Below, one piece after another: positions 22,318 to 25,300 of a DNA stretch of 64,000 bases (position 1 is the stretch's first letter; each line of letters opens with the position of its first letter). The DNA is from Halichondria panicea. Its lineage: Eukaryota; Porifera; Demospongiae; Suberitida; Halichondriidae. Under the pieces are notes generated by a model that was given only the letters and a program-made list of their open reading frames with translations, did no database searches and had not been told where the DNA came from. Both the position numbers and the translations under genes were made by a program. Location: the NCBI RefSeq assembly GCF_963675165.1, contig NC_087378.1, forward strand, positions 1,729,525 to 1,793,524. Direction: 5' to 3'.

Positions 22318-25300
22318 CTAGAGGCTGCTGCAATAAACAATTGGTTCATCAATTTTGTCCTCCATTGCTAACTGGCATAGCTTGATAGATGTCGCTCTGC
22401 CTGTAGCTTCCACCATCTCAGAAAACAAAGAGGTTTTGTCTTGAAGTAGGTCACGAGGCCTTCCAAATTCTTTCACTTCCCCACTTTCCAGCACCTAAAA
22501 ATCAGAGAGTAGTTAATAAATCTCGCACAATAATACGGGAGAAATTACCAGTATTTTGTCCGAATCTATGACTGTGTTTATCCGATGAGCAATAGTGATG
22601 ACTGTGCATTCAGCAAAATTGGAATGAAGTGTGTCTTGAATAATCTCATCAGTTCTAGAATAAACAAAAACAATAGAAGTTGGAGTTAAATATTTCACTT
22701 ACTTCAAGTCCACATTAGCAGTAGCCTCGTCCAGTATCAGGATCTTGTTCTTCTTCAGCAGTGCCCTGGCCAAACACACGAGCTGCTTCTGCCCCGCACT
22801 GAAGTTGCTACCTCCTTCAGACACCTCGCCAGCCAGCTGTCCCTCCAGCTGCTCAACTGCTCCCTTCAACTGTACCTGCTCCAGCACATCCCACAACTCA
22901 TTGTCTGAGAACTCGTTGAAAGGGTCTAGGTTGTAGCGCATTGTCCCACTGAATAGTACAGGGTCTTGAGGAATTATGGACATCTTGTTACGAAGGTCAT
23001 GTAAGCCAATGGACTGTATGTCCACACCATCGATGGTAATGACACCGGACGGCTCGGCCAGTCGATAGAGCACTGAGAGGAGGGAGGATTTTCCTGCTCC
23101 TGTCCTTCCCACAATTCCAACCTTCTCTCCTGGTTGGATCGTGAGATCAAGGTCCTTCAACACTAGGGGCAACTCAGGCGAGTACTGGAAAGACACGTTT
23201 TTCATTGAAATCTGAGCTCTTTTGGGCCATGCTGAAACAGTGTCCTTAAATGAAGGAGGTGACTCGAAGGATGCTTCGGATTTGAGTTTCGTATACCCCA
23301 ATATTCGCTCGGCAGAGATCATCTACATTGTGAATGTGTGTGTACAAGAAACACAAAGTTAAGTACCAAATTAAGGAACAAGCAAGTTTAGAGGGGTGCT
23401 CCATAAGGCTGCAAATAACTTTTTGCTATTAAACTTACGATGTTCTCTACTTCAGCACTTTGCCTGATGACATATTGCAACACATTGTTTAATACGAGAG
23501 AGTACACCAAAGCCAGACCAAGTAATGTTGGATCAAATTCTGAGGAGATCAAATCACTACTGTAACAATTAACACCTCATACATAAACAAACACCCACAC
23601 AACAGTACTCACCTCTAGACAGACCAACGGCAGAGAAGGCAAACAATGCGAGAAAGGCAGTCGATACAATGTCGGCTCTCAAACCCAGCCATCTGGTGAG
23701 CACATGGTATAGGTAGTAGCCCTAAAGTGATACTGTATAGCGTGAGTATGAATGAAATAGTTATACAGTGTACCTGTGTGTGACTGTTTTGGTAGGAATG
23801 AAAGCTTCTCATAGCAAGGTCTTCTTTTTTGAAAGTTTTAATAGTGAGAAGTCCTTGCAGAGTGGACGAGATATGCGAATATAGAGGACTTCGTGCTAAA
23901 GGAGGAACAATACATCCGATCATATATAGCAGCTGACGACAAAAAAAGATTCTCAGATTAGGTTTCCTTTTAATTAAACTTGTGGTTGCATGTAATGATT
24001 CTCATGCAGATTAGGCTTCTAAGTGGCTGCATGTGTACGATAACATGTGTATACATGTGTGCATGTACATTAATTGCTGTGTGTTACCAATAGCTTCCAG
24101 TCTCTTCACTTCCCTGGCCGAGCATATGTAGTAGTAACGTAGTAAAAAAAAGAAACCCAACATCAGAGCACAAGGTACTATGAGCCAGGGGATTGCAGCC
24201 ACAGACGTGACCAATGTCGACAGTGACCGAAACAACCACTGCATAAGAGAGAGATGAGAGCTACTAAAGTAATTGGTATGTCTGTGTGTGTGTGTAAGTG
24301 GAGAGAGAAAGGAGGAAAGAGATGGGTCTGATAGTGTACGCATGCATGTGTCAGACACCCTAACAACCCCCAAAAACGATCCAGATATTTGACCTGCTAC
24401 TGTACAAAAGTGTACACATGTTAATTGATGAGTACATACATGTTCACGTAAACTTACGAGAAGGTATTCACAGAAAATATATGGCAAAAGATCATCAAGA
24501 TATCCGATATCCTTTGAAAACCGATTCAAAATTCTTCCTACGCACACGATCAATGAACATCAACAAGATTAGTAGTAATTAAGCACTTACCTATCGGGTT
24601 AGTGTCAAAAAACAGAACTGGTACTCTCATCACGGAAGCAAACATTCTATTGTGAAGCACACGAGAGGCGTTGACACAAATGGCATAGCACATGACTGCA
24701 CGAAGCAGGTTGAATCCAATCAGTGAGACAATGAGAGCTCCGTAAACCCCTCTTCTCTGGTCATCGTCGAGGGAACAAGTAGTCCAATTATCATAAACTA
24801 GGACACTCCGATTTTCTGATGTGCATTGTGCCCTGCAAAAAAATGACGGCAACGTTAAATATTCAAATTTTAGTTGAGCATCATATACACTTACCAATTT
24901 GAGAGCCACCAATCGGACACTACCACACTGCCCTGAAAATTGTATGGATAGTGTGTATCTAACGTAAGAGTACTAGTATTGTGTGAGATTGTACCTCTCC
25001 TATTGCAAACAGGAGCATCATGATGAGAATAGCCAGTATGCTTCCGCCTGCTCTGAAGTAGTGGACATATGTCTTTAGTGAGAGAGAACCGTGAGAGGTT
25101 TCTTCGGGAGTCAGCAACATGGAGGTGACATCTTCCTGAGCCTGAAGGAATAAAGAGTGAATATTACGTAGCCTTTGATATACTCTAACCTCAGTAGCAT
25201 GAGTAGACGTTGATTGGAGTGAGGTCATTGAAGTGGAGTTACTCAGAGAGTACAGCTCATTGGGAGGATTGCCTCTACTAGGTCCTGCCAAGAAAATACG

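What the first reader, a model, noticed from the sequence alone, without database searches (positions are those of the whole stretch)
22712..23205. Gene-conversion-like tract in the NBD2 exon of inverted ABCC copy A
From about [10 protein letters not shown] to ATANVD, copy A (minus strand) and copy B differ by only about three residues, and at DNA level even synonymous positions almost all agree. The first ~40 codons of the same exon, and the membrane exons, are clearly diverged. Abrupt edges of near-identity between an inverted pair are best explained by ectopic gene conversion. Strong selection alone would not preserve synonymous sites.
Basis: partly seen in the sequence, partly recalled or inferred. 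Interest (0 to 1): 0.7.

Follow-up and report, generated by a model that had tools for sequence, protein, structure and literature searches.

The report
Gene-conversion tract in transporter ATPase exon
Part of the ATP-hydrolysing domain of one old, strongly diverged ABC-transporter gene matches its neighbouring copies far too closely, most likely because DNA was copied between the genes (gene conversion), a clear but ordinary case.

Summary
The window carries four ABCC4/MRP4-like genes of an unnamed eukaryote: A (minus strand) and B, C, D (plus strand; D runs off the window end). A is an old paralogue: outside two short stretches 503/1005 residues match B and synonymous sites are saturated. 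In exon 24, A 22708-23196 matches B at 472/489 bases and C at 466/489; A-B dS is 0.13, while B-C dS is 0.16 there and 0.17 elsewhere. Silent sites of the stretch thus evolve normally between B and C, so constraint does not explain the A match. The 5' edge lies inside the exon, the 3' edge 5 bases before its end; A's exons on both sides stay diverged. A second, shorter tract lies in exon 13 (NBD1), 26086-26239, with an 83-bp core identical in A, B and C. A is about equally close to B and C, so B is not the proven donor; D's exon 24 or an unseen copy is possible. Copying into A is favoured only weakly, by codon usage. Known kind of event; modest interest.

The parts
22708..23196 (-). Conversion tract in exon 24 (NBD2) of gene A
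   Evidence: 472/489 to B, 466/489 to C; dS 0.13/0.16 against saturation in the rest of the CDS
23197..23322 (-). 5' part of exon 24 of A, not converted
   Evidence: 74/126 identical to B; conserved-residue codons identical 2/17
22549..22654 (-). Exon 25 of A, not converted, 3' side of the tract
   Evidence: 77/106 identical to B; A-B dS 1.4
37408..37896 (+). Homologous stretch in exon 24 of gene B
53361..53849 (+). Homologous stretch in exon 24 of gene C
26086..26239 (-). Second tract, exon 13 (NBD1) of A
   Evidence: 93.5% to B, 92.2% to C by BLAST; codons at conserved residues 42/47 identical A-B over 26088-26239; segment score 22.9, 0/5000 permutations for A-B
34008..34161 (+). Homologous stretch in exon 13 of B; 34008-34090 identical in A, B and C
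49027..49180 (+). Homologous stretch in exon 13 of C
60642..60802 (+). Homologous stretch in exon 13 of D
   Evidence: 91.3% to A; A-D dS 0.23 over the tract
22354..29939 (-). Gene A, ABCC4-like, exons as modelled (start codon not located)
   Evidence: spliced alignment, no frameshift or in-frame stop in the model (0 stops)
30375..42711 (+). Gene B, ABCC4-like; last exon 42577-42711 after a 4.5-kb intron
43581..55133 (+). Gene C, ABCC4-like (first codons not in the model)
55676..63999 (+). Gene D, ABCC4-like, cut by the window end before exon 24

Best explanation
Non-allelic (ectopic) gene conversion. A break in exon 24 of gene A was repaired by copying from a B/C/D-type neighbour, replacing at least about 489 bp. 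The copied stretch begins inside the exon and stops close to where homology stops, at the exon end. A similar event replaced about 150 bp of exon 13. Shown: the mosaic, its edges, normal silent evolution of the stretch between B and C, and flanking exons in order and diverged. Inferred: the repair mechanism, that the two tracts are separate events, the direction (into A, about 70%), and that conserved NBD exons were hit because they kept most DNA similarity for pairing. The donor may be B, C, D or a copy outside the window.
For: A-B dS 0.13 and A-C 0.16 in the tract against saturated values in the 5' part of the same exon (pS 0.86) and in the rest of the CDS (pS 0.75). B-C dS is 0.16 in the tract and 0.17 in the rest, so silent sites there are not slowed. 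Codon identity at conserved residues 143/157 in the tract, 199/483 outside both tracts; 0/5000 permutations on conserved codons alone reach the observed segment. Exons 23 and 25 of A are in order and diverged (51.5% and 72.6% to B). The second tract, exon 13, has 0/5000 for A-B and A-D and 2/5000 for A-C. Both tracts lie in parts conserved against ABCC4 chains of the PDB: B 112/164 in the exon 24 tract (one residue past its edge included) against 19/43 in its 5' part, and C 46/60 in exon 13, with exon 8 at 24/42 (from alignments; the other exons were not counted). B and C share a 179-bp identical run across an intron (highest of 5000 permutations: 97), so copies of this cluster seem to convert. 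Codon usage of the A tract scores -8.0, against overlapping held-out blocks of A (mean 1.4, sd 3.6), B (mean -3.0, sd 6.0) and C (mean -3.9, sd 5.1).
Against: No outgroup orthologue of A or B was available, so the unconverted A exon was not seen and direction cannot be rooted. The codon-usage score of the tract lies inside the held-out A range (-8.9 to 6.5). Conversion is reported to fall with DNA divergence, and a genome-wide study of C. elegans is cited as suggesting that it favours pairs in the same orientation (PMC3966223, passages); A and B/C/D are diverged and inverted. Fourfold-site GC shows no clear rise in the tract (A 41/81, B 42/82, against rest 219/505 and 243/502), so no trace of GC-biased repair. 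No reads were seen, so an assembly chimera is not formally excluded.
Confidence: 0.92

Rival explanations
1. Same conversion, opposite direction: A donated the stretch to the common ancestor of B, C and D shortly before they split.
For: Tract distances are star-like: private sites A 10, B 7, C 13. In exon 13, A lies outside B/C/D (A to the others dS 0.17-0.23, among B/C/D 0.05).
Against: Codon usage of the exon 24 tract resembles B/C/D more than A, weakly. The timing must fall just before the B/C/D radiation.
Confidence: 0.22
2. No conversion: purifying selection, codon constraint or an overlapping antisense frame kept the stretch alike.
For: The stretch is well conserved in protein against ABCC4 chains (112/164), and antisense open frames overlap it.
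Against: B-C dS in the tract (0.16) equals that elsewhere (0.17); other conserved residues of A and B share codons only 199/483 times; one edge falls inside an exon.
Confidence: 0.02
3. Assembly chimera: reads of another copy (for example D exon 24, outside the window) were joined into A.
For: D's exon 24 is not in the window, so identity of the A tract to D cannot be excluded; the cluster is repetitive.
Against: The A tract is not a copy of B or C (10 private sites); frame and splice sites of A are intact in the model; the sequence next to the 5' edge is only 74/126 alike, which leaves little for a misjoin; in exon 13 the A tract is not D's sequence (A-D dS 0.23).
Confidence: 0.05
4. cDNA-mediated conversion: reverse-transcribed B/C/D mRNA recombined into A exon 24.
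For: The 3' edge lies 5 bases before the exon end and the intron was not carried over.
Against: The tract lies in one exon and spans no exon junction, so nothing needs a spliced template; a homology limit explains the edge as well.
Confidence: 0.06

Closest known systems
Interlocus (ectopic) gene conversion between adjacent, also inverted, paralogues, as reviewed for Caenorhabditis (PMC3966223, passages seen)
   Same: Adjacent paralogues, inverted pairs included; conversion can occur in regions of high identity between genes that are otherwise diverged; detection by excess identity over flanks.
   Different: Here the pair outside the tracts is saturated at silent sites, more diverged than the fog-2/ftr-1 pair (KS 28%) given as example there.
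ABCC6 and its pseudogenes in humans (conversion recalled; only the listing and abstract starts seen, and passages of PMC2329642 that hold only reference entries)
   Same: ABCC-family genes said to exchange sequence by conversion (recalled).
   Different: There a pseudogene donor and disease alleles (recalled); here genes without stops in the models (B exon 15 edge unsure) and an old paralogue.
ABCC4 / MRP4 (PDB 8bjf, 8sx7 and others)
   Same: Best solved relatives of B's exon 24 and of both halves of the C protein.
   Different: PDB chains of vertebrates (recalled); the cluster is a set of tandem copies in an unnamed eukaryote.
Bird ABCG2 / ABCG2-like paralogues (PMC7362505, passages seen)
   Same: ABC transporter paralogues tested for conversion, there with GENECONV and SIMPLOT.
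   Different: No clear evidence of conversion was reported there.

Membership tests
Interlocus gene conversion tract | Sharply bounded stretch of excess identity, silent sites included | tested here: met
   dS 0.13 inside, saturated in the rest; 0/5000 permutations
Interlocus gene conversion tract | Flanks on both sides remain diverged and in place (no crossover) | tested here: met
   5' part of exon 74/126, exon 25 77/106 A-B; exons 23 and 25 in order
Interlocus gene conversion tract | Silent sites of the stretch not specially constrained | tested here: met
   B-C dS 0.16 in the tract, 0.17 in the rest
Interlocus gene conversion tract | Tree of the tract differs from tree of the flanks | tested here: inconclusive
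   by distances A joins B/C at their own depth in the tract only, but with three sequences and no outgroup no rooted tree was made
Interlocus gene conversion tract | Donor and recipient identified | tested here: inconclusive
   codon usage weakly points into A; donor copy not resolved
ABCC4/MRP4-like full transporter | Best match to ABCC4 over both halves | tested here: met
   for B exon 24 and the two halves of the C protein, ABCC4 chains rank first; the proteins of A and D were not searched
ABCC4/MRP4-like full transporter | ABC ATPase domain present in the exon of the finding | tested here: met
   PF00005 in exon 24 of A, B and C
ABCC4/MRP4-like full transporter | Transport activity | not testable with these tools
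   needs expression

The most novel reading that the evidence does not exclude
The cluster evolves in modules: recurrent conversion keeps the ATPase domains (NBD1 exon 13 and NBD2 exon 24) of the copies alike, even of a very old paralogue, while the membrane domains that choose the substrate diverge freely; selection may favour such conversions because they refresh a shared engine.
Probability: 0.2. Interest if true: 0.5.

Novelty: new member of a known kind. Interest (0 to 1): 0.33.

Why it matters
It is a clean natural example of conversion between paralogues that are otherwise saturated at silent sites, found in exons of the conserved ATPase domains. It warns that trees made from NBD2 sequence would place gene A as a recent copy, while the rest of the gene shows it as old. 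If the pattern recurs in sister species, it would allow a test of whether conversion of shared engine domains is favoured by selection or only follows where DNA similarity remains.

Tried and rejected
Selection or silent constraint as sole cause: rejected because B-C dS in the tract is normal. GC-biased conversion as a trace: GC3 is higher in the tract (A 98/160 against 446/1021) but fourfold sites are not clearly so (A 41/81 against 219/505), so not used as evidence. Exon 8 as a third tract: 19/28 conserved codons identical, Fisher p 0.003, segment score 11.3 below the 99.9% permutation level of 15.2, and on conserved codons its best segment is reached by 4910/5000 permutations, so not claimed. 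B as proven donor: not supported, A is about equally close to B and C. No whole genome is held for the window (error). No tRNA or Rfam match in the window. Eight paper searches listed, by title and abstract start, no paper on conversion within an ABCC4 cluster; one search showed 8 of 14 papers and 12 of 13, and the organism is unknown, so this is a weak negative.

Discarded results: (codon alignment with B, C and D out of frame) was replaced, where the reading frame was set exon by exon. The first codon-usage test scored blocks with a table trained on them and was replaced by the held-out test. Dropped before counting: B exon 15 was trimmed at 34522; C's 14-bp piece at 49565, D's 13-bp piece at 61178 and D's 6-bp piece at 63557 were left out as doubtful exons; incomplete codons at exon edges were left out; C's exon 18 model (13 bp) is probably wrong. 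Exons 3 and 4, fused in A, were not compared with A. In one search A's fused exon 3/4 was set against both B exons; one search counts each A codon once and gives the same 199/483.

Full report
What was checked. The finding says that exon 24 (NBD2) of the minus-strand ABCC copy A contains a stretch nearly identical to copy B, with silent sites agreeing, inside an otherwise diverged gene. I modelled all four copies by a spliced alignment of a protein guide to the window. Introns are mostly GT-AG, with a few GC donors. A has 26 modelled exons with no frameshift and no in-frame stop; its start codon was not located. D runs off the window before exon 24.

The cluster. Pfam finds an ABC transporter domain in exon 24 of A, B and C. 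The best solved relatives of B's exon 24 and of two parts of the C protein are ABCC4/MRP4 chains. A and B stand head to head: 435 bases lie between A's first modelled exon and B's modelled start codon. B, C and D are close relatives: dS 0.16-0.18 outside the tracts. A is old: 503/1005 compared residues identical to B and synonymous sites saturated outside the tracts. Per exon, A-B nucleotide identity was compared for 24 exons; 22 of them lie between 43.8% and 76.5%, and the two exceptions are exon 13 (85.2%) and exon 24 (87.7%).

The tract. The alignment shows an abrupt start inside exon 24 at A 23196 and an end at 22708, 5 bases before the exon end. Between these, A-B is 472/489, A-C 466/489 and B-C 469/489 with no gaps. 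Just upstream in the same exon A-B is 74/126; in exon 25 it is 77/106; the intron between has no clear similarity (29/48 after alignment).

Selection or conversion. Three results separate these. First, A-B dS is 0.13 in the tract but saturated upstream in the same exon (pS 0.86) and in the rest (pS 0.75). Second, B-C dS is 0.16 in the tract and 0.17 in the rest, so silent sites of the tract change at the usual rate. Third, among only those codons whose residue is conserved between A and B, the tract has 143/157 identical codons against 199/483 outside both tracts, and none of 5000 permutations gives a comparable segment. Protein conservation, codon constraint or an overlapping antisense frame alone therefore do not explain the match.

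A second tract. The same scan finds exon 13 (NBD1), A 26086-26239: 42/47 conserved codons identical A-B, an 83-bp core identical in A, B and C with one difference in D, and 0/5000 permutations for A-B and A-D, 2/5000 for A-C. Towards its 3' end the differences of A from B, C and D become denser, so this edge is less sharp than those of exon 24. A third candidate, exon 8, is not significant by position.

Donor, direction, age. In the exon 24 tract 10 sites are private to A, 7 to B and 13 to C. A is thus about as far from B and C as they are from each other; the event is about as old as the split of B and C, or came later from a copy not seen. Direction cannot be rooted without an outgroup. Codon usage of the tract is nearer to that of B/C/D (score -8.0; overlapping held-out blocks of A mean 1.4, sd 3.6, range -8.9 to 6.5; of B mean -3.0, sd 6.0; of C mean -3.9, sd 5.1). 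This favours copying into A, weakly.

Mechanism. The most likely course is repair of a break in A by copying from a neighbour of B/C/D type. The converted stretches are conserved against ABCC4 chains of the PDB: B 112/164 in the exon 24 tract against 19/43 in its 5' part, and C 46/60 in exon 13; exon 8, not claimed, has 24/42; other exons were not counted. This fits a need for DNA similarity in pairing, and the 3' edge near the exon end fits loss of similarity in the intron. Copying among the plus-strand copies also seems to happen: B and C share 179 identical bases, 37855-38033, across exon 24, intron and exon 25, against a permutation maximum of 97. These mechanistic steps are inference. A point against: conversion is reported to fall with DNA divergence, and same orientation has been suggested to favour it (PMC3966223, passages).

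Known or new. Conversion between adjacent paralogues, also inverted ones, is established; a review of Caenorhabditis cases says that it can occur in patches of high identity in otherwise diverged genes (PMC3966223, passages seen). A bird ABCG2 study tested for conversion and reported no clear evidence (PMC7362505, passages seen). Conversion of human ABCC6 with its pseudogenes is recalled; only a listing was seen. This case is a new member of a known kind. The less usual feature is that the partners are saturated at silent sites elsewhere.

Noticed in passing
26086-26239 (A), 34008-34161 (B): Second conversion tract, in NBD1 exon 13, with an 83-bp core identical in A, B and C.
   Followed up: yes
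37855-38033 (B) against C: 179 identical bases between B and C across the end of exon 24, the intron and part of exon 25; a likely recent conversion between these two.
   Followed up: partly
38071-42576: The last intron of B, as modelled, is 4.5 kb long; 38899-39638 resembles C's intron 2 (44055-44772) and 39635-39890 resembles, inverted, part of C's intron 12 (48563-48814), perhaps a mobile element.
   Followed up: no
11936-13179: An inverted repeat with arms of 523 bp, about 91% identical, 198 bp apart.
   Followed up: no
13841-14136, 51070-51217, 60047-60155, 61568-61866, 62309-62542: Dispersed short repeats on both strands, some within introns of C and D.
   Followed up: no
6938-7762 and 9380-9994: Two related ankyrin-repeat coding stretches (46% identical over 170 residues; Pfam), a likely tandem pair.
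   Followed up: no
20575-21876: An open frame of 434 residues next to gene A with no Pfam match at E 0.001.
   Followed up: no
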